From assembly GCA_019239875.1 (NCBI GenBank), contig JAFAZI010000017.1:1-44403 (forward strand): DNA of 44,403 bases, read 5' to 3'. The notes under the pieces are model-generated. The model searched no databases, had not been told where the DNA came from, and worked only from the letters and a program-made list of their open reading frames with translations. Positions 3,586 through 35,149 of this stretch are shown here, in pieces (positions within the stretch are counted from its first letter, which is position 1; every line of letters begins with the position of its first letter). Both the position numbers and the translations under genes were made by a program. Source of the stretch: Frankiaceae bacterium. GTDB taxonomy: Bacteria > Actinomycetota > Actinomycetes > JAFAQI01.

Positions 3586-4409
3586 TCAGCAGGTTCAACG
3601 CGATGTCCAGAACCGCGGCGGCGGGGCTTGCCATGACAGCCGCGCTCACCCTGGCGGCAGGCTGCGGGGGCTCGTCGTCAAAGGGCACCTCGGCAGCGGG
3701 AAGCGGCAAGCAACTCATTGGCCTGTTCCGGCTGACGCCGGGCGCCGCGCATGGCAAGCAGCTGACCGGGACGTGGTTCCGCATGCTCCAGCCCAAAGGA
3801 GACGTCGCGACCGGTCCGTACATGGTGAATGGCGACTCGCCAGCTGACGGTGGCCGCGCGACGCTGCTCACGCCAGGTACGTCGGGCGGGCTGCGGACCA
3901 ACGCGTACCAGTCCCAGCCGGCACCGGCCTTCGACAGCCGGGGCAACTCGCTGGCGGACTCGATCACGAAGCCGACCAAGTTCTTCGGTGTCCAGTTCAG
4001 CATCTCCACCAACGAGGTCGACCTGCAGACCAAGACGAAGGTCGCGCCCCCGACCGTGGTCGACAACAACGGGAGACTCACCGCGAACCTTGCCTCGTGG
4101 GCGGCATCGTGGAACAAGCAGAACTTCAACCAGGGCGCACCGAAGCCGGTCTCCAGCACCGGTGCCCAGGCACCCGGTCAGCAGGAAGCCACGCGGGTGT
4201 TCGACTGGGTCTCGCACAAGTACCTCAATGGCGCCCCCAAGCCGAGCGTGTCCGGAACCGGAGCAACCGGCACCTACAACGCCTCGACCGGTGCCTTCGT
4301 CCTGCAGTGGACCAGCTTGATCGTCGACGGCCCATTCGCCGGGTTCACCGGGATCTGGCACCTCGAGGGCACGTTCCAGCCAGGTAGCGCAGGCCCCTCG
4401 GGCCAGTGA
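3582..4409 (+). CDS. lipoprotein, paralogue of the secreted protein at 5980-6720
   Basis: 275 residues; ATG 3582 overlaps the previous stop (ATGA). A lipoprotein signal ends in LAAGC with Cys28 as the lipidation site. The mature domain starts with KQLIGLFRLTPG and contains blocks shared with the protein at 5980-6720: FDSRGNSLA / FDNNGNSLA, then KPTKFFGVQFSIST / KPTNFENVKFAVST, then SWNKQNFNQG (residue 176 here), then GPFAGFTGIWHLEGTF / GPFNGFSGLWHLTGTF. The family is not one I can name. Its place between a membrane protein and ABC genes suggests an extracytoplasmic, membrane-anchored partner of the transporter, while the paralogue is released. Confidence 0.85.
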   Translation: MISRFNAMSRTAAAGLAMTAALTLAAGCGGSSSKGTSAAGSGKQLIGLFRLTPGAAHGKQLTGTWFRMLQPKGDVATGPYMVNGDSPADGGRATLLTPGTSGGLRTNAYQSQPAPAFDSRGNSLADSITKPTKFFGVQFSISTNEVDLQTKTKVAPPTVVDNNGRLTANLASWAASWNKQNFNQGAPKPVSSTGAQAPGQQEATRVFDWVSHKYLNGAPKPSVSGTGATGTYNASTGAFVLQWTSLIVDGPFAGFTGIWHLEGTFQPGSAGPSGQ

Positions 4410-4410
4410 C

Positions 4411-5187
4411 ATGCTCCTAGCCCGCCGAGGACGAATGCCCTCGCTGCCGAGCCCGTCGGCTCCAGTGTCCGTGCCGACGCCCGCGGCGATCGAGGTCGCC
4501 GACGCGACGAAGGTCATCGACGGCGTCACCGTTCTCGATCGGGTGTCGTTCACCGCGCGGCCCGGCCGCGTCACGGCGTTCCTCGGGCCGAACGGAGCGG
4601 GCAAGTCCACGACACTGCGGGCGATCCTCGGGATCGACCACCTCACCTCGGGGACGGCCACCATCGGAGGACGACGGTTCCACGAGCACCATCGACCGGC
4701 CGCCGTCATCGGGGCGCTGCTCACTCCCGACGCCATCCATCCGCGCCGGACCGCCCGCGGTCACCTGTCCGTCGTCGCCGCCTCGAACGGACTGCCCCGC
4801 GCGTCGGTCGCGAAGACGATCGAACTGGTGGGGATCACAGAGATCGCGGACCTCGAGGCCGGCCAGATGTCGCTCGGGATGCGGCAGCGGCTCAGCCTTG
4901 CGACCGCGTTGATCGGCGAGCCAGCGGCGGTGATTCTCGACGAGCCGCACAACGGTCTGGACGCTGCCGCAATCCGGTGGCTACGCGTCGTGCTCCGCCA
5001 ACTCGCTGACAGCGGTCGCACCGTGCTGCTGTCGAGTCACCTGATGCCAGAGATCGAGCTGGTGGCGGACGACGTCGTTGTCATCGACCGCGGGTCGATC
5101 CAGGCCGACGCCACCCTTCCCGAGTTCCTCAGCGGCCCTGACGTGTCGCTGGAGGACCGCTACCTCGATCTCGTGGGCGAGGCATGA
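4411..5187 (+). CDS. ABC transporter ATP-binding protein (exporter type)
   Basis: Up to 258 residues. Walker A GPNGAGKST, signature MSLGMRQRL and Walker B AVILDEPHNGLD are all present, with the H-loop in LLSSHLMPE. It belongs to the DrrA/CcmA-like ABC-2 exporter class, which pairs with a small integral membrane protein. ATG 4411 lies one base after the previous stop but lacks a ribosome binding site. ATG 4435, eight codons later and preceded by GAGGA, is an equally likely start. It overlaps the permease gene by ATGA. It should power export of a substrate that the flanking lipoprotein or secreted paralogue handles; the substrate is unknown. Confidence 0.92.
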   Translation: MLLARRGRMPSLPSPSAPVSVPTPAAIEVADATKVIDGVTVLDRVSFTARPGRVTAFLGPNGAGKSTTLRAILGIDHLTSGTATIGGRRFHEHHRPAAVIGALLTPDAIHPRRTARGHLSVVAASNGLPRASVAKTIELVGITEIADLEAGQMSLGMRQRLSLATALIGEPAAVILDEPHNGLDAAAIRWLRVVLRQLADSGRTVLLSSHLMPEIELVADDVVVIDRGSIQADATLPEFLSGPDVSLEDRYLDLVGEA

Positions 5188-5921
5188 GAACTGCGCTGCG
5201 AGGCGAGCTGCTGAAGATCGCCACCGTCCGCGGGCAGTGGATCGGGCTCGCCCTCGCCGCCGTCGCGATGCCAATGACCTCGCTGCTCGTGGCGGCCAGC
5301 GGCGGGCTAAGCCCGGAGGACACCGTGACGAGCGGAGCGGCCACCGGATCCCTGGCCGGCCTGCTCGGCTTCGGCGCGTGGGCCGCGTCGGTCACGGCCG
5401 GTGAGTACAGCCACCAGACGATGGTGGTCAGCCTGTCGACAGTGCCGCGCCGCACGGTGTTCTATGGCGCCAAAGTGATCGCGGCCAGCCTGACCGCGGC
5501 CGCCGCCAGCCTGGCCTCTGCCGTCCTGGCCTTCGCGGTCGTTTACGCCGTAACGCCTCATAGCTCTCACCGGGTCGGCAGCCCGGCGACGCTTCTGAGC
5601 GTTGTCGTGGCAGCCGTCGCCGTCACCGCCATCGGCGTGGCAGCTGGCGTGCTCACCCGGTCTTCAGCTGCCGCCATCACGGCCGTCGTCGTACTGATCC
5701 TGCTCCCCCAGACCGCGGCCGGCCTGCTCGGTGGTCTGCAGCCGTGGGTGGTCGGTGCGAGCCCAGGTCCCGTCATCACGCAGGTTGTCGGTAACTCCCA
5801 GCTGGACGCGGACCAGACCTATCCGCCAGGCACCGCCGCGGCGGTAGCGACATTGCTCGCCGCCGCGGCCGGCATTGCGGTCGTCGGTGGCTGCGCGCTG
5901 GTCCGGCGGGACGGCGGATGA
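5184..5921 (+). CDS. ABC-2 type permease
   Basis: 245 residues, six predicted membrane helices, starting MRTALRGELLKIATVRGQW. This is the usual amphipathic opening of ABC-2 permeases (ExxK...R at the cytoplasmic face). It is translationally coupled to the ATPase (ATGA at 5184-5187) and is its obvious membrane partner. The last residues RRDGG follow the sixth helix. Substrate not predictable from sequence. Confidence 0.88.
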   Translation: MRTALRGELLKIATVRGQWIGLALAAVAMPMTSLLVAASGGLSPEDTVTSGAATGSLAGLLGFGAWAASVTAGEYSHQTMVVSLSTVPRRTVFYGAKVIAASLTAAAASLASAVLAFAVVYAVTPHSSHRVGSPATLLSVVVAAVAVTAIGVAAGVLTRSSAAAITAVVVLILLPQTAAGLLGGLQPWVVGASPGPVITQVVGNSQLDADQTYPPGTAAAVATLLAAAAGIAVVGGCALVRRDGG

Positions 5922-5979
5922 ATCACCGTATACTCTACAATCACGGTTAAGTTTATCTGGATTTTGAAGGGAAGCGGAC
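5922..5979 (+). promoter_or_regulatory. AT-rich leader with candidate -10 and strong RBS
   Basis: A short AT-rich stretch in a GC-rich region. TATACT at 5929-5934 resembles a -10 hexamer, and GAAGGGAAG (5966-5974) is a strong ribosome binding site five bases before ATG 5980. This suggests that the secreted paralogue also has its own promoter besides read-through from the ABC operon. No clear -35 is visible. Confidence 0.4.
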
Positions 5980-6720
5980 ATGCATGTGACCCGGTACCAG
6001 CGGACCGTGGCCATCGGCCTTGGGGCCAGCCTGGCAGGCGGTCTCATCGCGGCGACGGCAGGTACGGCGGCCGGCGCTCCCCGAGCGGCGGTGCGCACCC
6101 CCGCAGCCGCCGCGCCGTCACGTCCCGCAGCTCATCATCACAAGCTGGTCGGTACCTTCACCATCAAGCGCGGTAGGGCGCACGGCAAGAAGGTCTCGGG
6201 CTCGTACTTCCGGATGATCACGCCCGTCGGCTCCTACTTCTCCAACTCGAGCTCACACGCGCGTGGTGGCACGTACACCCTGCTCAAGCCCGGCACGAAC
6301 AAGGGCCTCCGGACTGGTACCTACCAGCCCCAGCCGTCGCGCGCGTTCGACAACAACGGCAACTCGCTGGCTGGCCGCATCATCAAGCCGACCAACTTCG
6401 AGAACGTCAAGTTCGCCGTGTCCACGGCCAAGGTCGACCCACAGACCGGCACCACCGTTCGTGCGCCGCGGATCAAGGTGAGCGGGCACAAGCTGACCGG
6501 CGACGTCCGCGCCTTCGCCGCGTCGTGGAACAAGCAGAACTTCAACCAGGGATCGCCGAAGCCGAACGGCGCCTACTCAGGCCACACGACGAAGCTGCGC
6601 GGCAAGTACCACCGCAAGTCGCACAAGTACTCGCTGACGTGGAGGAGCCAGATCGTCGGCGGACCGTTCAACGGCTTCAGCGGACTCTGGCATCTGACCG
6701 GCACCTTCCACGCCCGCTAG
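5980..6720 (+). CDS. secreted protein, paralogue of the lipoprotein at 3582-4409
   Basis: 246 residues. A classical signal peptide (TVAIGLGASLAGGLIAATAGTAAGAP) replaces the lipobox of its paralogue, so this copy is soluble. It shares with the lipoprotein the blocks HGKKVSGSYFRM, FDNNGNSLA, KPTNF, SWNKQNFNQGSPKP (Ser182) and the closing GLWHLTGTF. The central region is more basic and His-rich near residues 50-60. The pair brackets the ABC exporter, an arrangement suggesting one anchored and one released version of the same binding or structural domain. Family not recognised. Confidence 0.85.
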   Translation: MHVTRYQRTVAIGLGASLAGGLIAATAGTAAGAPRAAVRTPAAAAPSRPAAHHHKLVGTFTIKRGRAHGKKVSGSYFRMITPVGSYFSNSSSHARGGTYTLLKPGTNKGLRTGTYQPQPSRAFDNNGNSLAGRIIKPTNFENVKFAVSTAKVDPQTGTTVRAPRIKVSGHKLTGDVRAFAASWNKQNFNQGSPKPNGAYSGHTTKLRGKYHRKSHKYSLTWRSQIVGGPFNGFSGLWHLTGTFHAR

Positions 6721-6756
6721 TCCAACCTGTGGTGCTCCGGCTCGGGGCGCCGCGGT

Positions 6757-6803
6757 TTTGGTGTCGCGAATCGACCTTCTGGGGGCGAGATCACGACACC
6801 AAA
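6757..6803. terminator. long inverted repeat, likely bidirectional terminator
   Basis: TTTGGTGTCG (6757-6766) pairs perfectly with CGACACCAAA (6794-6803), and further pairs (GA/TC, TCG/CGA) extend the hairpin inwards. It lies between two convergent genes and carries T-rich or A-rich ends on both strands, as expected for a bidirectional intrinsic terminator. Confidence 0.6.
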
Positions 6804-6841
6804 CTCGCATCGCCCGGTGAGGGCGGCGGCGGCGGTGGGTC

Positions 6842-7207
6842 TTACTTCACGCCCAGCAGGTCGATGACGAAGACGAGGGTCTGACCGGACAGGCGGTGTC
6901 CCCCGCCGGCGGGCCCGTACGCCTGCTCCGGCGGGATGGTCAGCTGCCGGCGGCCGCCGACCTTCATGCCGGGGATGCCGTCCTGCCAGCCCTTGATCAG
7001 ACCCTGCAGCGGGAACTCGATCGACTCGCCGCGGTTCCACGAAGCGTCGAACTCCGACCCCGATGCGAACTCGACGCCGACGTAATGGACCTCGACGGTG
7101 TCACCCGGCTTGGCCTCGGGACCGTCACCGGTGACGAGATCTTCGATGACGAGTTCGGTCGGCGCATCGCCGCTGTTGCCGCTGAGCTCCGGCTTGGTGA
7201 GGGACAT
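6842..7207 (-). CDS. FKBP-type peptidyl-prolyl cis-trans isomerase
   Basis: 121 residues, a single FKBP domain without signal peptide, so cytoplasmic. Diagnostic features are the VEVHYVGVEFASGSEFDAS strand-turn, the FPLQGLIKGWQDGIPGMKVGGRR segment with the conserved Ile and Trp of the active-site pocket, IPPEQAYG, and the final VFVIDLLGVK strand. This is the standard length for actinobacterial cytosolic FKBPs, which assist protein folding. ATG 7207 is well placed and the next upstream gene is on the same strand 22 bases away, so the two could be co-transcribed. Confidence 0.95.
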   Translation of the reverse strand: MSLTKPELSGNSGDAPTELVIEDLVTGDGPEAKPGDTVEVHYVGVEFASGSEFDASWNRGESIEFPLQGLIKGWQDGIPGMKVGGRRQLTIPPEQAYGPAGGGHRLSGQTLVFVIDLLGVK

Positions 7208-7229
7208 GACCCCACCCTAGGCGTTCGGA

Positions 7230-9362
7230 TCAGGCTTGCAGCGCCAGCCCGAACGGCAGGACTTCGCTCACGCCCGCAAGACGGAGCTCTCGACCGGTGA
7301 TCGCCATCGTCCAGCCGGTGTCGATCAGGTCGTCGACGAGCAAGACAGGCGAGCCGCCGAGCTGCTGGATCGCGTCGCGCTGCGCCGCGCTGACTCCGAA
7401 CGATCCACGTAGCGCCCGGACGCGTTGCGCGCTGTTGCTCTGCGACCTCGACGCGTCCGGCGGCCGGTAGGACTCCAGTGGTCCGAGATCTGCGAGCCGC
7501 CCGAGCTCGGCGATCCGCGCTGCGAAGGAGCGCACGAGCGTTGGGCGTCGCGCCGACGGCACCGAGACGACAGCTGCCGGTCGTCGCTCCCAGCTCCAGC
7601 TCTTCAGGACCTTGACCGCGGCAGCGACGGTGTCATCGGGCACCGGTACGTCGGATGCGGTCTCGTGCAGCAGCCGACGTAGCGGCAGACCCCAGCCGAT
7701 GTCGCTCAGCCGGGCGATCACGCGACCGGTCCCGACGGTCTCGTCCGGCGCGATCCTGCCGGTCAGCTCGATGCCGAGGCGGGGCAGGCCGGTCGGCCAC
7801 TGCTTTCGCGGTTCGACGACGACACCGGGCTGCACGAGCCGGTCGCGCGACTGGGCGACAGCTGCTTCCGACACGGTCGAGGTCCACTCGTGGCCGGTGC
7901 AGCGGTCGCACCGGCCGCATGGCTGCGCCTGCGGGTCATCGAGCTGGCGGCGGAGGAACTCCATCCGGCACCCGGTCGTCGCGATGTAGTCGCGCATCGC
8001 TTGCTGCTCGGACTCCCGCGCCGCCGCCACCTTGGCGTAGCGCTCCGAGTCATAGGCCCACGGTGCGCCGGTCGCCACCCAGCCACCCGGAGCGCGTCGT
8101 ACCGCGCCCTCGACGTCGAGCACCTTCAACATGGATTCCAGCCGCGACCGGCTGAGGTCCACCATCGTCTCCAGCACCGGCACGCTGAGCGGCTCCGGCG
8201 AGTCTCGCAGCACATCGAGGGCACGGGTGACCACAGACTCCGCCGGGAAGCCCACGGTTGCGAAGTAGTGCCAGATGTCCTCATCCGACGATCCGGGCAG
8301 CAGCAGCACCGCCGCCCGGTCGACGCCTCGTCCCGCACGTCCGACCTGCTGGTAGTACGCCACCGGCGACGACGGCGCACCGAAGTGGATCACGAATCCG
8401 AGGTCCGGCTTGTCGAATCCCATGCCGAGCGCCGAGGTCGCGACCAGCGCTTTCACCCGGTTGTCGATCAGGTCCGACTCGGCTCGGAGGCGATCGGCGG
8501 TCTCGGTCTTTCCCGTGTACGACGCGACGTCGTACCCCGTTGAACGAAGGTGATCGGACACCGCCTCGGCCTGCGCGATCGTCAGCGTGTAGACGATTCC
8601 TGAACCCGGCAGCTTGTCGAGCTGCTCCGCGAGCCACGCCAACCGATACGCATCAGTCGGCAGCTGCACGACGCCGAGGTAGAGACTTTCGCGATCCAGG
8701 CTGCCGCGAAGCACGAGCGGCGGATCGGTGGCGCCGGACACCACGAGCTGGTCGGACACGTCGTCCACCACTCGAGCATTTGCGGTCGCGGTGGTGGCGA
8801 GCACTGGGATGTCGGGCGGCAGGCCAGCCATGAGGCTCTTGAGCCGCCGGTAGTCCGGGCGGAAGTCATGACCCCAGTCAGAGATGCAGTGGGCCTCGTC
8901 AATGACCAGCAGGCCGGTCTCCTTGGCGAGCTGCGGGAGCACCGCGTCCACGAACTTCGGGTTGTTGAGCCGCTCGGGCGAGACCAGCAGCACGTCGATC
9001 TCATCCGCGGCGGTCGCGACCTCGACGTCATGCCACTCCTCAGGATTCGAGGAGTTGATCGTGAAGGCCCGAATGCCGGCGCGGGCGGCCGCATCGATCT
9101 GGTTGCGCATCAGCGCCAGCAGCGGTGAGACGATCACGGTCGGGCCCGCTCCGGCGGCACGAAGCAGTGCCGTCGCGATGAAGTAGACCGCTGACTTGCC
9201 CCACCCGGTTCGTTGCACGACCAATGCCCGGCGATGGCGCACGACCAGCGCCTCGATCGCGACCCATTGATCATCCCGGAGCTGGGCACCCGGCCCGGCA
9301 AGGTCGCGCAGCAGTCGCTCGGCCTCGTCGCGAAGGGTGGGGGTAGTCACGAGTTCGCTCAC
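7230..9362 (-). CDS. RecQ-family DNA helicase with C-terminal phosphoribosyltransferase-like domain
   Basis: 710 residues. Helicase motifs: RTGWGKSAVYF (Walker A, about residue 55), SPLLALMRNQ, DEAHCISDWGHDFRPDYRRL (DEAH box and the RecQ aromatic-rich loop), TTATAN, and QQVGRAGRG (motif VI). A zinc knuckle follows (CRMEF then CGRCDRC). The last roughly 120 residues are not helicase: AAVVSVPSARRP followed by VLLVDDLIDTGWT is the PRPP-binding loop pattern of type I phosphoribosyltransferases. Such a C-terminal extension occurs in some actinobacterial RecQ proteins and its role is unclear. 3'-5' unwinding of DNA in recombination or repair is the expected main activity. Confidence 0.92.
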   Translation of the reverse strand: MSELVTTPTLRDEAERLLRDLAGPGAQLRDDQWVAIEALVVRHRRALVVQRTGWGKSAVYFIATALLRAAGAGPTVIVSPLLALMRNQIDAAARAGIRAFTINSSNPEEWHDVEVATAADEIDVLLVSPERLNNPKFVDAVLPQLAKETGLLVIDEAHCISDWGHDFRPDYRRLKSLMAGLPPDIPVLATTATANARVVDDVSDQLVVSGATDPPLVLRGSLDRESLYLGVVQLPTDAYRLAWLAEQLDKLPGSGIVYTLTIAQAEAVSDHLRSTGYDVASYTGKTETADRLRAESDLIDNRVKALVATSALGMGFDKPDLGFVIHFGAPSSPVAYYQQVGRAGRGVDRAAVLLLPGSSDEDIWHYFATVGFPAESVVTRALDVLRDSPEPLSVPVLETMVDLSRSRLESMLKVLDVEGAVRRAPGGWVATGAPWAYDSERYAKVAAARESEQQAMRDYIATTGCRMEFLRRQLDDPQAQPCGRCDRCTGHEWTSTVSEAAVAQSRDRLVQPGVVVEPRKQWPTGLPRLGIELTGRIAPDETVGTGRVIARLSDIGWGLPLRRLLHETASDVPVPDDTVAAAVKVLKSWSWERRPAAVVSVPSARRPTLVRSFAARIAELGRLADLGPLESYRPPDASRSQSNSAQRVRALRGSFGVSAAQRDAIQQLGGSPVLLVDDLIDTGWTMAITGRELRLAGVSEVLPFGLALQA

Positions 9363-19093: not shown

Positions 19094-20824
19094 CTACGAA
19101 GACTCGCCCTGGCTGAAGTACGGCTTGAGGTACTCCCGCAGGTGCGGGTCGCACACGTAGACGTAGGTGCCGAGAATGCCCCGCGTCAGCAACACGGCGT
19201 AGATATTGACGATGAACTGCAGTAAATCGTCGTCGCTGTACGTAATGCCTAGTTGCTTGTTGTTCTGCTTGCCCCTGGCGTCGAAGTAGTTCGTTCGATC
19301 GAAGACGATTACTCGACGCTGCGGGTCATAGCGCAGGTCGTTGCCGATGATCACGCCCGCGTAGTTGAGGTCGTACCCCTGGATGGTGTGGATCGATCCA
19401 ACCTCGTTGATCGAAGACGGCGAGTTGACCCAGTCGACCTGCGTCTGGTTCCACTGGAGGCGCAAGCCGTCGAGCTCGATATCGGACGCGGTTCGATCGT
19501 TCTTGCTGCGCCACTCCCAGGCGTAGCCGGCGACCAACCTGGAGAGGCCAACCTCGCTGTTGCGCGCCAAGATCTGGCGCCGCAGTTCGGCCGCGTCACC
19601 AAAGAACCGCAAGTCGTACAGCGGAAATTTGCTCGCCGCGGGCGGCTGGCCGCTAAGCATGCCGCGGATGTAGCCGACGTAGTCCGACCCGGCCGCCACG
19701 CGCATCTGACTCGACAGGCGGTAGCGCCGACTTCCAGCGCTTGCCCTTGCGACGACCTCATTGATTGTCCGACGGCTGAGGTCCGCCGGAATGACACTTT
19801 GAGCCGCATCGAGCAGGAAGATTCGATGGTCGCTTTGCGCACGAATCCAGTCGAGCTGCGTCTTTGACGGGTCGTCAGCGCCGAAGAGCTTCTCGTTGAT
19901 GTCGATGAACTGACGGTTCTGCGGCCCGGAAGGCTGATTCGCACGCTGGTTCAGCCGGTGCATCTCATCAACAATCAAGAGGTCGAATCGCACGTTCGAC
20001 GCGCCGACCTGGAACGGCGTCAACACGGACGTCGCGTCTAGGCCAGGTGTCTTGCGAAACACCTTCTGGATCGATGTACGTAGCGACTGCTGCGGAACGA
20101 CGAGACCCACTCTGAAGTCGCGGAGAAGCTCCGCATAGCCCTCAACGAAGAACTCCGAGAGGAGCGTGTCCGAGTCTGGCTCGATGGTTGGGTCTGCGGC
20201 TTCGATGTCGCTCAGAAGCTTCATCAGGTAGATGCCAACGACCGTCTTGCCAGTACCAGGGTCACCCTGAATGACGATCTCGCTTGTCCGTGCTGCCGCC
20301 AGATCCTCGAACAGCCCATTGAGGATGTTTTCAATTGCGAGCTCCTGATCGGCGGTCAGCGCCTTGAACGGCGAAAGCTTGAACAGGTCGCTGTTCTCGA
20401 TCTCGCGGACCTGCCGAGTGAACATCCCCAGCCGGCGAAGCTCGTCGAAGACCTCGTCAAACGTCCGCTGATACTCAGCGCGTCCGTAGTAGTCCGCGTT
20501 GGTAATGCCCTCATTGCGGTTGAGCACCTGGAACTGGCCATCGCCAGCGAGCAGCCGAATCAAGTAGGACTCGAGATCGAGAGATGCCGACTTGTTGAAC
20601 GTGGCGTCGAGAACCACGCGAACACCCGTGAGGTGCTTCTTCGTCGGTGACTCAAGATGCTGCCGAAGTCGGCCCGCAACGTTGATCGATTCGCCAACAT
20701 AGATCTCGCCGGCGTTCGTCAGGGTGTAGACAACCGGCCAGTTTCCATACCGCGAGTCCAGAGGGAGGCGAGCCTGGACGCTCGCCAGATCGAAGGGGAA
20801 CTCCTCAACCTGGAAGCTGGTCAT
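19094..20824 (-). CDS. GIY-YIG nuclease fused to DUF2075 helicase-like ATPase
   Basis: 576 residues from ATG 20824. Residues 30-105 form a GIY-YIG domain: VVYTL (the GIY strand), IYVGES (the YIG strand), Arg52 and catalytic-type Glu85 in DLESYL. After a linker comes a DUF2075 (Schlafen-group-3-like) P-loop domain with Walker A GDPGTGKT at 187-194, Walker B LLIVDEMHRL (Asp286-Glu287), LLDAAQSV, a QMR motif (SSQMRVAAGSDY) and the terminal IHTIQGYDLNYAGVIIGNDL, LLTRGILGTYVYV. Such proteins are thought to be nucleic-acid-processing enzymes and are common in defence neighbourhoods. It overlaps the MazG-like gene by 20 bases, so the two form an operon. GC content is lower than in flanking genes. 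Confidence 0.88.
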   Translation of the reverse strand: MTSFQVEEFPFDLASVQARLPLDSRYGNWPVVYTLTNAGEIYVGESINVAGRLRQHLESPTKKHLTGVRVVLDATFNKSASLDLESYLIRLLAGDGQFQVLNRNEGITNADYYGRAEYQRTFDEVFDELRRLGMFTRQVREIENSDLFKLSPFKALTADQELAIENILNGLFEDLAAARTSEIVIQGDPGTGKTVVGIYLMKLLSDIEAADPTIEPDSDTLLSEFFVEGYAELLRDFRVGLVVPQQSLRTSIQKVFRKTPGLDATSVLTPFQVGASNVRFDLLIVDEMHRLNQRANQPSGPQNRQFIDINEKLFGADDPSKTQLDWIRAQSDHRIFLLDAAQSVIPADLSRRTINEVVARASAGSRRYRLSSQMRVAAGSDYVGYIRGMLSGQPPAASKFPLYDLRFFGDAAELRRQILARNSEVGLSRLVAGYAWEWRSKNDRTASDIELDGLRLQWNQTQVDWVNSPSSINEVGSIHTIQGYDLNYAGVIIGNDLRYDPQRRVIVFDRTNYFDARGKQNNKQLGITYSDDDLLQFIVNIYAVLLTRGILGTYVYVCDPHLREYLKPYFSQGESS

Positions 20825-21131
20825 ACCGCGAACTCCGCCCCCGCGCCTTCTCGATCGGATACTTCGCTTCGGACACCTCAAGTTTGTCTAAGACAATCTG
20901 ATCGAGATCAAGTCCAAGCTTCGCGCCGAGTAGATAGCAGTAGGTCAGGACGTCGGCCAACTCGCTGGCAACCGCACCGATTGCGGGCTCTGAGTCCCAT
21001 TGAAAGCATTCAAGTAGTTCACCGGCCTCGATTGCGATGCTCTTAGCGAGGTTCTCGGCTAGGTGGAACCGATCCCAGTCCCGCGCATCAACAAAGTTTC
21101 GTATACCTGCGACGACTGAAGCATTGACCAC
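20805..21131 (-). CDS. MazG-like nucleotide pyrophosphohydrolase
   Basis: 108 residues. The MazG/dCTPase-type four-helix core is recognisable: HLAENLAKSIAIEAGELLECFQW followed by ELADVLTYCYLLGAKLGLD, giving the metal-binding ExxxE...ExxD pattern. It would hydrolyse (d)NTPs to monophosphates and pyrophosphate. The C-terminal KYPIEKARGRS is typical of the short RS21-C6-like subgroup. Translation starts at GTG 21131, with no clear ribosome binding site, and the gene runs 20 bases into the GIY-YIG-DUF2075 gene. Co-expression suggests joint action on nucleotides and nucleic acids, possibly limiting phage replication; that is inference. Confidence 0.88.
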   Translation of the reverse strand: MVNASVVAGIRNFVDARDWDRFHLAENLAKSIAIEAGELLECFQWDSEPAIGAVASELADVLTYCYLLGAKLGLDLDQIVLDKLEVSEAKYPIEKARGRSSRYDQLPG

Positions 21132-21294
21132 GCGCTGAACTGTAGTTGGCTGGTCGGTCTCAACAATGAGCGAGCCGAGCCCTCACCGTCGGAATACATC
21201 CCGAGATCGTTCGCGTGCTGCCATAAGCACACGGCGCCACCGCTCGATCTAGCAAACGCTCGAAGTCGATCTTGGATCGTGGAAAGGTCGAATC
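21132..21294. promoter_or_regulatory. divergent promoter region of the lower-GC module
   Basis: 163 bases between the MazG-like gene (minus) and the large ATPase gene (plus). GGAAAGG at 21281-21287 is the ribosome binding site of the plus-strand GTG. No confident -35/-10 pair or operator is visible. A shared divergent promoter would allow co-regulation of the three genes. Confidence 0.35.
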
Positions 21295-23703
21295 GTGACC
21301 AACGAGGCAGACGTCTTCTTTGCGTATCCGGGTTCGCCGGCGCTTCTGGCCGAGACACTTCGCAGCGCGGCCAAGAAGATCGCTGAGCGTAGCGGCGTGC
21401 AATGCGCTACGTGGGAATCGCTCAAGGTCGATGGGCGGGTGATGATCAACGAAATTCTGACGACCATCGACCAGGCCAAGGTGGTTATGGCCGACGTCGG
21501 GGCACTCAATCCGAACGTCCTGTTCGAGGTTGGCTACGCGATGTCGTCTGAGAAGCAACTAATGCTGCTTCTCGATGAGTCAGACACGGCTGCGCATCGA
21601 CGCTGGCAGGAACTCGGTGTCCTCGTGGGAATCGGATACACAGGCTACGGCGGCAGCAGCGAGCATCTGTCCACCAGATTCGCCGAGCTCCGGCCGGACC
21701 AGCGTTCGGACCGGCTTTGGGAGGACCTGTTGTTCGCGGGAAACGTGAGGCCCCGCGAGCCTCGAACGATCTTCTACATGCCAGTGGGCACCCGAGGCGA
21801 CGCAGGCAAGAGCCTCGACCGAACGTTGATGGCTCGACGAAATCTTTCGGTTAACACGGCCGACGAAGATGTGCAGGGCCTCGCTCCCCTCGCGTGGTAC
21901 GTCACGCAGTTGTATGCATCCAGTGCGGCGTTGGTCCACCTGCGCGCGCCAAGCCGACAGCGCGCCCAGGTCCACAACGCACGCGCAAGTCTGTTTGCTG
22001 GCATGGCGATGGGGCTCGGCTTGCCAACTCTTCTTGTCGCCGAAGAGGGCTTTGAGCCGCCGCTCGACTACCGGGACCTGTTGTACGTGTACCCAACGGC
22101 AAAGCAACTCGCGGAGCACGCAACCAAGTGGCTCGATGAACTCCCAGCACTGACTGGGACGCGTGCGCTAGGCCGTAAGAAGCTAACGGCAGAACTGCCA
22201 CGCTTCGGCGAGTACGTGGCCGAGAACGAGCAGGATGAATTGGCAGATTACTTCGTCGAGACAGGGCAGTACGAGGCGGTTCTAACAAGCACCTCATCCG
22301 TCTTTGTGGGCCGCAAAGGGACCGGAAAGACCGCCAACATGCTCACTGCCGCGGAAACACTCGCGGTGGACAAGCGCAACCTGGTCACCGTCATCAAGCC
22401 GTCGGGGTACGAGCTGGAGAGTCTCGTGGCGGTTCTGACGCATCTGCCCAAACGCGAAGTTGCTGACTACCTGCTCGACGGCCTGTGGCGTTACATGCTG
22501 CTGACAGAGATCGCTGGTTCTGCGATTCGCGAAGCCGAAGGGAGGCCGGCCGGCATCGCTTCAGGCAGCGAGATGGATCAGCTTCGCGTTCATATGGATA
22601 CCCTCGCGAGCGGTGCTGAGATCAACTTCGCGGTGCGGCTCGAGCGCCTCACTGATGATCTCCTTGCCGGTCTCGCCGATCTACCTGATGGCGTTGAGGA
22701 TGCCCAAGCGTGGCTAACCGAACGTCTGCATGAGAGCGCGATGGCGGAGCTTCGATCCGTGATGGGTCGTGCACTGCGCGACCGCCAACGGGTCGCAATT
22801 CTGATCGACAATTTGGATAAAGCATGGGAGAGGGCAGCAGATCGAGAACTTCAATCACGAATGATCCTCGGCCTCCTATCCGCGGTCGGCCGTGTCGAGA
22901 AGGACTTCCGACGGGAGGATGCCTGGCGCGTCAGAGTTAACGTCACGCTCGCGGTGTTTCTTCGAGCGGACATCTTCGACGTCGTGCGTCAGCACGCGCG
23001 AGAACCAGACAAGATCACGACCCTCGAAGTGCACTGGGACGACGAGCATCTTCTCGCCCGACTCATCGAGGACAGATACACCGCGCATCGTGGCGAGGAC
23101 GCGCGGCCGGAAGACCTTTGGACTGAGTTTTTTAGCCCCACGGTTCGTGGTTTGCCGGCTCGCGACTATCTGCTGTGGCGATCGCTTCCGAGGCCACGCG
23201 ACCTCGTTTACCTCTGCAACGCTTGTGTATTGACAGCCACCAACCACCGGCACAGTCGAATCGAAGAAGACGATGTCCTCCTGGCCGAAAGCGACTACTC
23301 TCGCTTCGCGCTTGACGCGCTCCGCGTTGAGGGCTCGCCTTCGGAAGATCTCGACGACGTCCTCCTCGAATTCGCCGGCGCTGATGCCATTGCGCCGCTG
23401 TCGGAAGTCTTCGCGATCCTGGAGCAAGGCGTATCTGGCATGACCGCAGAGGAAGCATTCAGCAGGCTCCTACGTGCGAACTTCATCGGCATCGAGATAG
23501 GCGACACGATCTTCGGCTACCCCGTAACGGAGCAGGAGGAAAAGAAGGCACGAGTTCTGTCGAACCGCCTCGGAGGAAGGCTCAGCCGCGAGGCACGCGT
23601 CATCGTCCATCCGGCATTTCGTCCGTACCTTGAGATTGAGGACTCCGACCTCGTCGCTCCGCCGAAGACGATCGACCTAAACGCACTCGACGCCCCGCAC
23701 TGA
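21295..23703 (+). CDS. P-loop ATPase with tandem TIR/NDT-like N-terminal domains
   Basis: 802 residues from GTG 21295 (GGAAAGG, seven bases away). Residues 1-120 look like a TIR-like or nucleoside-deoxyribosyltransferase-like Rossmann domain: VFFAYPGSP, then DQAKVVMADVGALNPNVLFE with VGYAM, in which Glu78 occupies the usual catalytic position. Residues 155-285 look like a second, diverged copy (TIFYMPVG, then LYASSAALVHLR, then AGMAMGLGLPTLLVAEEG). From residue 330 comes a STAND/Sll1717-like ATPase: Walker A GRKGTGKT (339-346), a Walker-B-like VAILIDNLDKAWE, and a helical C-terminal half. Such architectures sense infection and act on NAD or nucleotides. GC content and codon use match the adjacent GIY-YIG/MazG pair, not the flanking genes. 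Domain assignment of the first 285 residues is inference from motifs. Confidence 0.8.
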   Translation: MTNEADVFFAYPGSPALLAETLRSAAKKIAERSGVQCATWESLKVDGRVMINEILTTIDQAKVVMADVGALNPNVLFEVGYAMSSEKQLMLLLDESDTAAHRRWQELGVLVGIGYTGYGGSSEHLSTRFAELRPDQRSDRLWEDLLFAGNVRPREPRTIFYMPVGTRGDAGKSLDRTLMARRNLSVNTADEDVQGLAPLAWYVTQLYASSAALVHLRAPSRQRAQVHNARASLFAGMAMGLGLPTLLVAEEGFEPPLDYRDLLYVYPTAKQLAEHATKWLDELPALTGTRALGRKKLTAELPRFGEYVAENEQDELADYFVETGQYEAVLTSTSSVFVGRKGTGKTANMLTAAETLAVDKRNLVTVIKPSGYELESLVAVLTHLPKREVADYLLDGLWRYMLLTEIAGSAIREAEGRPAGIASGSEMDQLRVHMDTLASGAEINFAVRLERLTDDLLAGLADLPDGVEDAQAWLTERLHESAMAELRSVMGRALRDRQRVAILIDNLDKAWERAADRELQSRMILGLLSAVGRVEKDFRREDAWRVRVNVTLAVFLRADIFDVVRQHAREPDKITTLEVHWDDEHLLARLIEDRYTAHRGEDARPEDLWTEFFSPTVRGLPARDYLLWRSLPRPRDLVYLCNACVLTATNHRHSRIEEDDVLLAESDYSRFALDALRVEGSPSEDLDDVLLEFAGADAIAPLSEVFAILEQGVSGMTAEEAFSRLLRANFIGIEIGDTIFGYPVTEQEEKKARVLSNRLGGRLSREARVIVHPAFRPYLEIEDSDLVAPPKTIDLNALDAPH

Positions 23704-23735: not shown

Positions 23736-23781
23736 CTGACTGGTGTTGGTCACCACTTTGTGAGCAACCAACACCAGTCAG
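23736..23781. terminator. 15-bp perfect inverted repeat, bidirectional terminator
   Basis: CTGACTGGTGTTGGT (23736-23750) pairs perfectly with its complement at 23767-23781, with a 16-base loop that can add CAC/GTG. It lies between the convergent ATPase and Ro60 genes; the stop codon of the Ro60 gene (23778-23780) is inside the right arm. It marks the junction between the lower-GC module and the Ro60/tRNA unit. Confidence 0.7.
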
Positions 23782-25409
23782 AACGGCCAGCCGGCCGTTG
23801 TATGGGCCTCCAGCAGGTTCAGCATTGTGAACGTGGCGTCGTTCAGTCCGCCGAACTCGTGCCGGTTGTTACGCCCGGCGTTGACCACCGTCGTGCGGTA
23901 GCCGCCGAGGTTGAACCCATACACCGGCACGTTCGCCGGCAGCTGGTCCGTCGCGACCCGGTCCCGGTACGTCCACGACATTCGCACGCCACCGAACGAC
24001 GCGAACCCCGTGTCCGTGAACGTCTGCATGTCCGAGACGATCACGACCCGGTCGTGACGCCGGTACGTCGCACTGACCGCCTCCGCGATCCGCGTCCCGT
24101 GCCCGACCTCACCCACGCGCCGCGTGAACCGGTCGACCTCGGCCAGCACCGACCCACCCGGACGCACCGGGTGACGGAACTGCCCGTCGGCGAAGCCGTG
24201 CAGGTCGACCGCGTTGCCGCGCATGGCCATCACGACCCCGAACACTGCCGCCGCCTTCACCGGCGTCATCGTCGAGCGAGCCGAGAACGCCTGCTGCGAC
24301 ATCGACGCCGACGTGTCGACCAGCACCAGCGTCCGGCCAGCGAACGCGGGAACCCGAGCCGTTGCCGCCTCGAGCGCCTGCTCCAGCGCCCACGCCCACC
24401 GGAGCGACGGCGCCGCGTCGTATGCCGAGACGAACCGGTACGGGAACTGCCGCGACCGCGCGACCTCGTCGGGGTCGGCGAGCTTGGCCGCGACCGCCGA
24501 GGCGACCGCGTCCGACACGCCTGCCTCGTCGAAGTTGCGGAGGTTACGCAGCAGCGCCATGTATCCCATCGACGGGACCACGGCCTCCCACGCCGCGGCG
24601 TCCATCGGGCCATCCAGCCACCCGGCCAACGCCTCCCACGTCATCCCCGCCTGCGTGAGCAGCGCAGCGACCGTCGCGTCCCGCGCGGCGAGCTGCACGA
24701 AGCCCTCCCGGTCCGCGACCGGCATCGCCTCCAGCGCCCGACGGCGCGTGAGCACCGACAGCGACTCCGGCACGGCGAGGTCGGCGCGGTCGTGCCGCCG
24801 GTCCAGCAGGTACCGGAACAGCGCCGACTGCGCGTCATCGCGTGGCCGGGCGTGCGTCAGCTCGAGCACGTCGGCCATCCGCCATGCCCGCGAGAGCCCG
24901 TCGTACTTCAGCGCCGCCCGCTCCGTGTAGAGGCGGGCAGCCGCGTCCGCGACGCCACGCTTCACCGGCTGCGGCAGAGCGCGACCGTATGCCGACGTCC
25001 AGTACGCCAGGACCTCGGCCGGCTCGTCGGCACGCAGCAGCGCCGAGTCCACGACCCGGCGACCGAACGCTCCGCCGGCCCGCACGTACTCGACCGCGGC
25101 CACGACCGATGCCGACCGCATGTTCGCCGTCCCGCGCAGCCACGGCACGAAGCGCGCGACCCAGTCCGGGTCCGTCTTCGTCACCGCGTGCACGAGCTCC
25201 ATGAAGCGCTGGTCACGCTTCGCCGCCGACTCGTAGAACGTGTCCTCCCCCGCCATGTTGACCACGGCCAGGAGAAACAGCTCCGACTTCGCGTCGTGCG
25301 CGTATGCCGGCCCGCCCTCGTGCGTGAGGGCACGCCGTACTGCCCGGACCGGCGACGTCAGCGTCGCGCCCGGTCCGGCAGCCTTCGCCTTGTGATCGAA
25401 CTTCGTCAT
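23778..25409 (-). CDS. rsr: Ro60/TROVE-domain RNA-binding protein
   Basis: 543 residues, close to vertebrate Ro60 in length. The N-terminal two thirds are helical HEAT-like repeats of the TROVE ring (HAVTKTDPDWVARFVPWLRG, NMRSASVVAAVEYV, AALKYDGLSRAWRMADVLELTH, ALEAMPVADREGFV, WEALAGWLDG). The C-terminal third is a von Willebrand A domain with a complete-looking MIDAS: DTSASMS starting at residue 365 and VIVSDMQTF. Ro60 proteins bind Y RNAs and ends of misfolded RNAs and, in bacteria, work with PNPase in RNA degradation. ATG 25409 has GAGGAGGG upstream. A candidate Y RNA lies 52 bases upstream on the same strand, and a tRNA array precedes it. Confidence 0.95.
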   Translation of the reverse strand: MTKFDHKAKAAGPGATLTSPVRAVRRALTHEGGPAYAHDAKSELFLLAVVNMAGEDTFYESAAKRDQRFMELVHAVTKTDPDWVARFVPWLRGTANMRSASVVAAVEYVRAGGAFGRRVVDSALLRADEPAEVLAYWTSAYGRALPQPVKRGVADAAARLYTERAALKYDGLSRAWRMADVLELTHARPRDDAQSALFRYLLDRRHDRADLAVPESLSVLTRRRALEAMPVADREGFVQLAARDATVAALLTQAGMTWEALAGWLDGPMDAAAWEAVVPSMGYMALLRNLRNFDEAGVSDAVASAVAAKLADPDEVARSRQFPYRFVSAYDAAPSLRWAWALEQALEAATARVPAFAGRTLVLVDTSASMSQQAFSARSTMTPVKAAAVFGVVMAMRGNAVDLHGFADGQFRHPVRPGGSVLAEVDRFTRRVGEVGHGTRIAEAVSATYRRHDRVVIVSDMQTFTDTGFASFGGVRMSWTYRDRVATDQLPANVPVYGFNLGGYRTTVVNAGRNNRHEFGGLNDATFTMLNLLEAHTTAGWPF

Positions 25410-33817: not shown

Positions 33818-33844
33818 GTGAGCCGAACCGGCATGCCTTGCGTG

Positions 33845-33894
33845 AACCTGTGCAGGGTTGGTGACACCCCGGTGTCGCTGGGCCTTCACAGGTC
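33845..33894. other. structured spacer RNA element, copy B
   Basis: Equivalent of 26579-26628. ACCTGTG (33846-33852) pairs with CACAGGT (33887-33893). Compared with copy A, one C-G pair has become T-A by a double change, the internal mismatch has changed from A-G to C-T, and the apical stem has C-G replaced by T-G. All of these keep the fold. Confidence 0.65.
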
Positions 33895-33966
33895 GTCGGT
33901 TGAGCACCTCCGGCAGGAGTCGGACCTGCGTCCCCGCCGTCGTAGACCGGGGCTGCATCCGCTGAC
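33895..33966 (-). pseudogene. decayed tRNA-Arg(ACG) copy
   Basis: The 3' acceptor strand CGGAGGT, the T-stem and the anticodon loop CTACGA are still recognisable next to the hairpin copy. The T-loop has TCCGACT instead of TTCGACT, the anticodon stem is damaged, and the 5' acceptor strand is replaced by unrelated sequence. It is not expected to fold as a tRNA. Confidence 0.8.
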
Positions 33967-34057
33967 GACGCCGTCCCGTCGACAGAGGAAATCGCCTCCC
34001 GGCGTCGAAGCCCACTTCGCCTGGTGGCTGTCATCAGGCAGACGGATCGGGGCAGGG

Positions 34058-35149
34058 TTGCCGAACAGGACCTCGCGGGCGGCCATCGCCGCTGCAGCGG
34101 TTGGCCTCATCGTGCCTGTCGCCCCGCATGCGTGGGCGGCCGGCACCAGCGTCGCCCTGACCAGGAGCGCATGGTTCTCGACCAGCATCAGCGACCAGGC
34201 GGGGGCGCCCCCAGGCACCCTGCCGGTCGAGTTGCCGGACTCAACCGGCGTCCCGAAGGGTGACGACGTCGTCGCGTTCACCGAGGATCAGTCTGGCAAC
34301 TCGAGCAAGGAGACGCTGCTCTTCTTCACGTTGCCGAAAGCGACCGCATCGAGCACCATCACCGAGTTCACCGTGACGGCCACACTCGACCCCGCCCCGA
34401 CGGCCCCGCAGGCAGCGGCGGCCAAGGCGCCGGTGATGGCCTGCCTGCCGACCCGCGACTGGCCGGCCGGTGAGGCGCAGGACTCGTCCCAGCAACCCAC
34501 GGTCGACTGCAGCAGCGGCGTCGGCGGCGTGTGGCACGGGTCAACGGTGAGCTTCGCCATCCCCAAGCTCGCGCAGAGCTGGGTGGATGACGCCAATCTC
34601 GGTGTCGCCCTCGTCAACGACCCGAAGAACAAGACGCTGCCGTTCCAAGCGGTGTTCAAGGGCGGCAAGGCGATCCACGCCACGCTGGCGTTCCAGGCTT
34701 CCCCGTCGAAGCCGTCACACCCGTCGCATCACCACACCACGCCCCCGCAGTCCGGCAGCCACCATCAGGCCAACGGCGGAGGCGGAGGTGGCGGCGGTTC
34801 GGGCGGTGGAGGCTCGTTCAGCGCGCCGACGCCCACAGTCAATCTGCCGAGTGGCGGCGCCACAACGGTCAACACGAGCCCCGAGAGCAAGTCGCCGGTC
34901 GTCGCCGCCTCGGGCAGCGCGGCGCAGCCCCGAAACGCTGCGCTCGGCGGCACCGGCAAGGCTTCGACACTGCCATCCGCCGGATTCTGGACGGTGGCGG
35001 CTGCACTACTCATCCTCCTCGTCGGCGCCGGCGCCGCGCTCAGCCCGCGCAACGCCGTGGCGCCCACACGTGCCTCCCGCAGTCGACTCGACCGCCTGCT
35101 TCGTGACCCGGAACGACTCGCCAGCCTCACAGCTCGGAGCCAGCCATGA
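34058..35149 (+). CDS. secreted DNRLRE-like protein with C-terminal membrane anchor
   Basis: About 363 residues from TTG 34058 (GGCAGGG upstream). The frame stays open to 33818, but that part lies over the decayed tRNA copy. Signal peptide: RAAIAAAAVGLIVPVAPHAWA. The extracellular domain has SKETLLFFTLPKA, ITEFTVTATLD and VSFAIPKLAQSWVDDANLGV, a pattern like DNRLRE/TGF-beta-propeptide-like surface domains. A His/Pro/Ser- and Gly-rich linker follows (about 25 residues of mostly Gly and Ser), then a C-terminal helix WTVAAALLILLVGAGAAL and a basic tail. The stop overlaps the start of the ABC binding-protein gene (ATGA), so it belongs to the transporter operon. Role unknown. Confidence 0.75.
   Translation: MPNRTSRAAIAAAAVGLIVPVAPHAWAAGTSVALTRSAWFSTSISDQAGAPPGTLPVELPDSTGVPKGDDVVAFTEDQSGNSSKETLLFFTLPKATASSTITEFTVTATLDPAPTAPQAAAAKAPVMACLPTRDWPAGEAQDSSQQPTVDCSSGVGGVWHGSTVSFAIPKLAQSWVDDANLGVALVNDPKNKTLPFQAVFKGGKAIHATLAFQASPSKPSHPSHHHTTPPQSGSHHQANGGGGGGGGSGGGGSFSAPTPTVNLPSGGATTVNTSPESKSPVVAASGSAAQPRNAALGGTGKASTLPSAGFWTVAAALLILLVGAGAALSPRNAVAPTRASRSRLDRLLRDPERLASLTARSQP

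What the first reader, a model, noticed from the sequence alone, without database searches (positions are those of the whole stretch)
19094..23703. Lower-GC block: GIY-YIG-DUF2075, MazG-like enzyme and TIR/NDT-like ATPase
The three genes have visibly lower GC content and different codon choice than the desaturase and Ro60 genes on either side. The nuclease-ATPase and the pyrophosphohydrolase overlap by 20 bases; the large ATPase is divergent from a 163-base intergenic region. Components that cut nucleic acid, lower nucleotide pools and possibly consume NAD or nucleosides are typical of anti-phage modules. I know of no named system with this exact set.
Basis: partly seen in the sequence, partly recalled or inferred. 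Interest (0 to 1): 0.75.

Follow-up and report, generated by a model that had tools for sequence, protein, structure and literature searches.

The report
Two adjacent putative anti-phage gene modules
A foreign-looking, low-GC patch in an actinobacterial chromosome holds two separate probable anti-virus modules side by side: a very often re-used partnership of a DNA-cutting helicase with a nucleotide-destroying enzyme, and an unrelated single protein built like an immune receptor (TIR domains on an ATPase).

Summary
The block is real: three intact genes, GC 0.55-0.61 against 0.65-0.72 in flanking genes, absent from close relatives. It is not one three-gene system. (1) The MazG-like gene and the GIY-YIG/SLFN-g3 (DUF2075) helicase form a genuine, translationally coupled pair (14- or 20-nt overlap in 7 of 7 close homologues). 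Across two bacterial classes the pairing recurs: MazG lies next to 20 of 24 full-length GIY-YIG helicases and 6 of 6 PD-(D/E)XK-like versions in the second class; conversely 27 of 30 such MazG genes there lie within 1.5 kb of an SLFN-g3 helicase. Order and strand vary and the N-terminal nuclease is swapped, so the link has been kept through rearrangement. The MazG is closest to dCTP pyrophosphatase. Three distant copies sit beside SauUSI-like modification-dependent restriction enzymes. PADLOC and the literature library gave no named system. (2) The 802-residue protein is a separate single-gene module: an active-looking TIR domain (invariant Glu78), a second TIR-like domain lacking that Glu, and an ORC/Cdc6-STAND ATPase (Sll1717 family); none of 18 relatives has the pair nearby. 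Most likely a two-system defence island. Mechanism is inferred; no activity was shown.

The parts
19094..20824 (-). GIY-YIG nuclease domain (residues ~30-110 from the ATG) fused to an SF1-type SLFN-g3 (DUF2075) helicase; 576 aa from the conserved ATG at 20824 (ORF is open to a TTG at 20881)
   Evidence: Pfam PF01541 1.6e-5, PF09848 1.8e-64; GIY-YIG residues Y33, Y42, G44, R52, H56, E85 and helicase motifs G187-T194, D286-E287, Q342, R375, Q482-G483, R548 invariant in 10 homologues; start from alignment
20805..21131 (-). MazG-like all-alpha dNTP pyrophosphohydrolase, 108 aa, closest in PDB to dCTP pyrophosphatase 1 (RS21-C6); stop overlaps the helicase start by 20 nt
   Evidence: PF12643 1.7e-18; ExxE...ExxD (E35, E38, E57, D60) invariant in 15 homologues; PDB profile hit 3.7e-34
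21132..21294 (.). 163-bp divergent intergenic region
   Evidence: ORF coordinates; no sigma-70-like match found
21295..21705 (+). TIR-like domain 1 of the 802-aa protein (residues 1-137), with the NxNVxxExG motif and invariant Glu78
   Evidence: model pLDDT 87.6; VIA Z 11.4 to TIR-STING, 10.5 to AbTir, 9.7 to SARM1, 10.1 to DNPH1; E78 in 12 of 12
21763..22149 (+). TIR/NDT-like domain 2 (residues 157-285), predicted inactive: hydrophobic residue (F234) at the position corresponding by motif to Glu78
   Evidence: VIA Z 10.8 to DNPH1, 10.4 to RPS4/RRS1 TIR; column 234 is F/V/M/L/I in 12 of 12
22204..23631 (+). Sll1717-family ORC/Cdc6-STAND-type P-loop ATPase (residues 304-779)
   Evidence: NF047389 283 bits, cut-off 75; VIA Z 13.2 TnsC, 12.3 Cdc6, 12.0 NRC4 resistosome; Walker A GxxGxGK and DNLDKAW invariant
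21295..23703 (+). whole 802-aa gene: TIR + TIR-like (inactive) + Sll1717 ATPase, a separate single-gene module
23736..23781 (.). 15-bp-stem inverted repeat between the convergent 802-aa and Ro60 genes, probable bidirectional terminator and right edge of the block
   Evidence: RNA fold z -6.2; sequence

Best explanation
A small accessory (horizontally acquired) defence island made of two independent modules. Module A (19094-21131, minus strand) is a coupled pair: an N-terminal GIY-YIG nuclease on an SLFN-g3 SF1 helicase, and a MazG/DCTPP1-type pyrophosphohydrolase. Proposed action: the helicase loads on invading or abnormal DNA (replicating, modified or damaged), the nuclease cuts it, and MazG hydrolyses dCTP or C5-modified dCTP so that the invader cannot rebuild, or so that modified cytosine does not enter host DNA and trigger self-cutting. 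Module B (21295-23703, plus strand) is a one-gene STAND-type sensor: the ORC/Cdc6-like ATPase senses an invader and oligomerises, bringing its first TIR domain (Glu78) into an active NAD(P)- or nucleotide-cleaving state while the second TIR-like domain acts as scaffold; infected cells stop growing or die. Shown by computation: domains, intact motifs, pairing, independence of A and B, foreign composition. Inferred: defence role, sensing, substrates, killing.
For: Pair: 7 of 7 close homologues overlap by 14 or 20 nt. MazG is next to the helicase in 19 of 23 genomes of a second class, including 6 of 6 with a PD-(D/E)XK-like N-terminus. Reverse test: 27 of 30 MazG loci have an SLFN-g3 helicase within 1.5 kb; genome co-occurrence Fisher p = 1.7e-14. 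The window's own 4.1-Mb genome has one above-cut-off copy of each and they are adjacent. Catalytic residues invariant. Restriction-type neighbours: SauUSI-like PLD-DEAD-DUF3427 enzyme beside three distant pairs (L046, L053, L087), a methyltransferase and a restriction-enzyme-like gene beside L054. Module B: fold and motifs; low GC in nearly every host (0.52-0.62 against flanks 0.64-0.75); restriction-type genes among neighbours. TIR-Orc/CDC6 fusions already proposed as immune (PMC10853773). Patchy occurrence.
Against: No phage-challenge or biochemical data exist for either module. MazG/DCTPP1 enzymes are usually house-cleaning, so module A could be a repair/sanitation pair. The pair lies outside recognisable defence islands in several genomes. 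TIR substrate cannot be told from NDT/DNPH1-type nucleotide cleavage by fold alone (Z values tie). Four of 24 full-length helicases and the Paenibacillus plasmid copy lack an adjacent MazG. The two modules could cooperate in this one strain even though they are unlinked elsewhere.
Confidence: 0.62

Rival explanations
1. Module A is a DNA-repair and nucleotide-sanitation pair, not defence: MazG removes damaged or methylated dCTP and the nuclease-helicase processes DNA into which such bases were built.
For: MazG is closest to dCTP pyrophosphatase 1, which hydrolyses dCTP and 5-modified dCTP (PMC7162842). A second nucleotide-cleaning NUDIX enzyme sits beside the pair in the L. plantarum plasmid.
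Against: Patchy, low-GC and mobile distribution: no match in family relatives; full-length homologues in 7 of 296 class genomes including the window's own, plus G089. Swapping of two unrelated nucleases, and restriction enzymes as neighbours, fit restriction better than housekeeping. The NUDIX enzyme itself matches a PADLOC candidate defence family (PDC-S07).
Confidence: 0.22
2. The three genes form one three-component anti-phage system.
For: They are adjacent, share low GC, and the ATPase is divergent from the pair's operon.
Against: 0 of 18 relatives of the 802-aa gene have the pair nearby; no actinobacterial pair locus examined has a full relative of the 802-aa gene. The pair is complete in many genomes without it.
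Confidence: 0.06
3. The 802-aa protein works as a nucleoside or nucleotide N-glycosidase (DNPH1/NDT-like) that destroys the nucleotide pool rather than NAD.
For: Weak sequence match is to DNPH1 and NDT (E 0.0012; PF05014 E 0.011); the second domain's best fold match is DNPH1, Z 10.8, and domain 1 scores 10.1 with DNPH1.
Against: Domain 1's best matches are TIR domains including NADases (TIR-STING 11.4, AbTir 10.5, SARM1 9.7); PADLOC's TIR effector model is matched at 4e-6; the STAND-like body resembles the TIR-NLR RPP1. The Z values are tied, so this is open.
Confidence: 0.25
4. The block is a decaying chance juxtaposition of transferred genes with no selected function here.
For: Neither module is fixed in relatives.
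Against: All three frames are open and every catalytic motif is intact.
Confidence: 0.1

Closest known systems
SauUSI-like type IV restriction enzymes (PLD-DEAD helicase-DUF3427; PADLOC mREase_IV)
   Same: Nuclease fused to an NTP-driven helicase; found directly beside the MazG-helicase pair in three distant loci
   Different: SF2 helicase and PLD nuclease; the pair here has a GIY-YIG nuclease, an SF1 SLFN-g3 helicase and a MazG partner; no homology between the helicases was tested
Schlafen group 3 helicase domain (PF09848, formerly DUF2075)
   Same: Helicase domain full length, 1.8e-64
   Different: No Schlafen RNase core found; GIY-YIG nuclease instead, so not a Schlafen RNase
dCTP pyrophosphatase 1 / RS21-C6 (MazG-like superfamily)
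   Same: Best PDB relative, 3.7e-34, catalytic acidic residues kept
   Different: Bacterial, 108 aa, near-obligately linked to a helicase-nuclease gene
MazG-containing candidate of DefensePredictor (PMC13092281, Fig. 6F)
   Same: MazG was predicted as a defence domain but not validated
   Different: The partner genes of that candidate could not be read, so identity is unknown
TIR-Orc/CDC6 fusions noted by PMC10853773 and the Sll1717 P-loop ATPase family (NF047389)
   Same: TIR plus Orc/CDC6-type ATPase; NF047389 match 283 bits against a cut-off of 75
   Different: Here two tandem TIR-superfamily domains, the second without catalytic Glu; a one-gene locus without HerA or REase partners
DS-41 anti-phage protein (NF053860)
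   Same: Local match over the start of the ATPase, 46.7 bits
   Different: Far below the family cut-off of 370 bits; not a member
Swarozyc (DUF4062 TIR-like NADase; PMC13174449)
   Same: Divergent TIR/NDT-like domain with conserved catalytic Glu beside regulatory modules
   Different: Different TIR family and a different, STAND-type ATPase

Membership tests
GIY-YIG nuclease | GIY...YIG tyrosines, catalytic Arg and Glu | tested here: met
   Y33, Y42-x-G44, R52, H56, E85 invariant in 10 homologues; PF01541 above cut-off
SLFN-g3 helicase (PF09848) | score above gathering cut-off and intact P-loop, Walker B and arginine motifs | tested here: met
   218.7 bits, cut-off 24; motifs invariant
Schlafen RNase | N-terminal Schlafen core RNase domain | tested here: not met
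   N-terminus is GIY-YIG; no Schlafen core match in Pfam
MazG-like/DCTPP1 pyrophosphohydrolase | ExxE...ExxD metal-binding motif | tested here: met
   E35, E38, E57, D60 invariant in 15 sequences
MazG-like/DCTPP1 pyrophosphohydrolase | dCTP / 5-modified dCTP preference | not testable with these tools
   only homology to DCTPP1
Sll1717 P-loop ATPase (NF047389) | score above curated cut-off over the full model | tested here: met
   283.1 bits, cut-off 75, model 1-454
TIR NADase | TIR fold | tested here: met
   domain 1 Z 11.4 over 128 residues to TIR-STING, 10.5 to AbTir; pLDDT 87.6
TIR NADase | catalytic glutamate | tested here: met
   E78 in 12 of 12 (domain 1); position 234 of domain 2 hydrophobic in 12 of 12
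TIR NADase | NAD cleavage | not testable with these tools
   no assay; DNPH1-type activity not excluded
STAND/NLR-type receptor | ORC/Cdc6-STAND ATPase fold | tested here: met
   Z 12.3 Cdc6, 12.0 NRC4, 11.4 RPP1; whole-model pLDDT 81.7, pTM 0.60
STAND/NLR-type receptor | ligand-induced oligomerisation | not testable with these tools
   none
DS-41 | NF053860 cut-off 370 bits | tested here: not met
   46.7 bits
Any named PADLOC system | strong model match for each component | tested here: not met
   best matches are weak and partial: PDC-S14 6e-7, PDC-S41 2e-6, AbiO 5e-6, TIR effector 4e-6; MazG none

The most novel reading that the evidence does not exclude
An undescribed, widespread class of two-gene defence systems in which a MazG/dCTP-pyrophosphatase-type enzyme is the constant partner of an SLFN-g3 helicase that carries exchangeable nuclease domains (GIY-YIG or PD-(D/E)XK), coupling destruction of invading DNA to control of the (modified) dCTP pool.
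Probability: 0.45. Interest if true: 0.78.

Novelty: new variant of a known kind. Interest (0 to 1): 0.55.

Why it matters
MazG-type enzymes have been predicted but not validated as defence components (PMC13092281). A near-obligate, nuclease-swapping partnership with one helicase family gives a concrete, small, testable system linking DNA restriction with nucleotide-pool control, and the association statistics make it worth cloning. The second module is a compact TIR-STAND protein whose built-in second TIR-like domain, lacking the catalytic Glu, offers a simple model for scaffolding in NLR-like receptors.

Tried and rejected
Three-gene system: rejected by neighbourhood tests. TTG start at 20881 for the helicase: rejected in favour of the ATG at 20824 (alignment). 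Prophage or phage origin: no phage relative of the 802-aa gene; the one good phage-collection hit for the helicase (MT836409.1) is an unverified faecal contig that carries bacterial-looking genes; viral contigs gave three helicase relatives at 25-36% and one full relative of the 802-aa gene. Integration using the 147-bp repeat 26553/33819: it is a diverged, degenerate tRNA-Arg copy lying outside the block, and the gene at 33818 has no Pfam match. Exact right boundary of the insertion: not resolvable, because Ro60 is absent from all relatives. Literature searches for DUF2075 with MazG, Sll1717, and Schlafen with GIY-YIG returned no paper; a later looser search gave nothing describing the pair. 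VIA lists do not exclude other folds.
Full report
Observation. The three ORFs are at the stated places and open. Their GC is 0.597, 0.554 and 0.607 against 0.65-0.72 for the 21 other window genes measured. Codon usage is clearly atypical for MazG and the 802-aa gene, and within the range of the other genes for the helicase, whose GC3 is 0.79. The helicase start is best placed at the ATG at 20824, conserved in homologues, which gives the 20-nt overlap with MazG. On the left, the PucR-ferredoxin reductase-desaturase operon is syntenic in two genomes of the same family, homology ends at 19005, and high-GC unrelated sequence follows there. On the right, a 15-bp-stem hairpin (23736-23781, z -6.2) separates the block from Ro60.

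Module A: domains. The 576-aa protein has an intact GIY-YIG domain and a complete SLFN-g3 helicase domain; the 108-aa partner is a MazG-like enzyme whose nearest solved relatives are dCTP pyrophosphatases. The residues expected to be catalytic are invariant in all aligned homologues.

Module A: the pairing is real. In the window's class, all six close homologues (49-62% identity) have MazG immediately upstream with a 14- or 20-nt overlap (the starts of L016 and L021 were re-read from the alignment, because the scripted coordinates for these two rows were wrong). A more distant full-length homologue (G089) has MazG divergent upstream. In a second class of the same phylum, 19 of 23 genomes with the helicase have MazG within 1.5 kb: 13 of 17 GIY-YIG forms and 6 of 6 forms with another N-terminus. 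In these the MazG is upstream, downstream or convergent, so the association survives or re-forms after rearrangement. The alternative N-terminus shows RIDF...ELKQW-type motifs of a PD-(D/E)XK nuclease, with only weak NERD/SfsA matches, so the fold is inferred from motifs. In the opposite direction, of 30 fetched MazG loci in that class 27 have an SLFN-g3 helicase within 1.5 kb, and presence per genome is strongly correlated (Fisher p 1.7e-14; related genomes are not independent, so this p-value is optimistic). The window's own genome has one above-cut-off SLFN-g3 helicase and one MazG-like gene of this family, and they are neighbours. Control loci fetched for other genes (802-aa relatives, desaturase, Ro60) show no MazG.

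Module A: context. Beside the pair are a PLD-DEAD-DUF3427 enzyme (PADLOC mREase_IV, full-length matches) in the L. plantarum plasmid (L046, also with a NUDIX enzyme matching PADLOC PDC-S07), in actinobacterial L053 and in faecal contig L087, and a cytosine methyltransferase plus a restriction-enzyme-like gene in L054. SauUSI, the named enzyme with this PLD-helicase-DUF3427 layout, cuts DNA with modified cytosine (own knowledge), and DCTPP1 hydrolyses dCTP and C5-modified dCTP (PMC7162842). This suggests, but does not show, that module A deals with modified-cytosine DNA or the dCTP pool.

Module B. The 802-aa protein belongs to the Sll1717 P-loop ATPase family. AlphaFold2 models (whole: pLDDT 81.7, pTM 0.60; residues 1-288: 87.6, 0.89) show two tandem TIR/NDT-superfamily domains and an ORC/Cdc6-STAND ATPase. 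Domain 1 matches TIR-STING (Z 11.4, 3.1 A over 128), AbTir (10.5) and SARM1 (9.7), and also DNPH1 (10.1); domain 2 matches DNPH1 (10.8) and the RPS4/RRS1 TIR (10.4). The Glu of NxNVxxExG is invariant in domain 1, and the position that corresponds by motif in domain 2 is always hydrophobic. The ATPase part matches TnsC, Cdc6/ORC, NRC4 and RPP1. These Z values overlap with common AAA+ folds and do not prove function. TIR-Orc/CDC6 fusions have been noted before as probable immune proteins (PMC10853773). The gene occurs in 6 of 393 genomes of the class including the window's own, is of lower GC than its flanks in nearly every host examined, has restriction-type genes among its neighbours in some loci, and is found on plasmids.

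Independence. 0 of 18 distinct loci of module B (excluding a repeat fetch of the Blastococcus locus) carry MazG or the SLFN-g3 helicase in the stretches held, up to about 10 kb per side. No actinobacterial pair locus examined over about 19 kb carries a full-length relative of the 802-aa gene. The three-gene system is therefore rejected; a two-module island is the best reading.

Known versus new. PADLOC gives only weak partial matches for all three proteins. The literature library returned no paper joining DUF2075 with MazG, or Schlafen with GIY-YIG, helicase and phage, and a looser search found nothing describing the pair. DefensePredictor predicts MazG as an unvalidated defence domain, but the partner genes are in a figure that could not be read, so priority is uncertain. 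The library lacks most subscription papers and most preprints, including the 2025 preprint on bacterial Schlafens cited in PMC12839542, which might cover related helicases.

What is shown and what is inferred. Shown: gene structure, composition, motifs, recurrence of the pair, separateness of the two modules, predicted folds. Inferred: anti-phage role, DNA cutting, dCTP or modified-dCTP hydrolysis, NAD or nucleotide cleavage, sensing and oligomerisation.

Noticed in passing
window 27310-27415 (-): A full-length but below-cut-off match to YrlA (Y RNA-like, 38.7 bits, gathering 69, E 2e-5) lies in a gap of the 16-tRNA array, close to a Ro60/TROVE gene (23778-25409): a candidate Y RNA for this Ro60.
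   Followed up: partly
window 23778-25409 (-): The Ro60 gene is absent from all 20 other genomes searched, 11 of them of the same family, although its GC is normal (0.716).
   Followed up: partly
window 26553-26699 and 33819-33965: 147-bp direct repeat (84%) covering most of tRNA-Arg(acg); the second copy is degenerate and forms the start of the ORF 33818-35149.
   Followed up: partly
L047 5989-8382 and 8773-12411: In a Rhodococcus plasmid the TIR-ATPase relative is split into two ORFs and is followed by a DUF4062 gene, the domain of the Swarozyc NADase.
   Followed up: no
L087 (MT836409.1) 3459-8713: An unverified 'Bacteriophage sp.' faecal contig carries the MazG-helicase pair at about 60% identity with a SauUSI-like enzyme next to it; its other long ORF looks bacterial, so the label may be wrong.
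   Followed up: partly
L108 8001-10337: A viral-collection contig (IMG/VR, 50.7 kb) encodes a full-length 34%-identical relative of the TIR-ATPase.
   Followed up: no
window 28164-29282 (+): Guanylate-cyclase domain fused to a STAND-type ATPase, beside the tRNA array.
   Followed up: no
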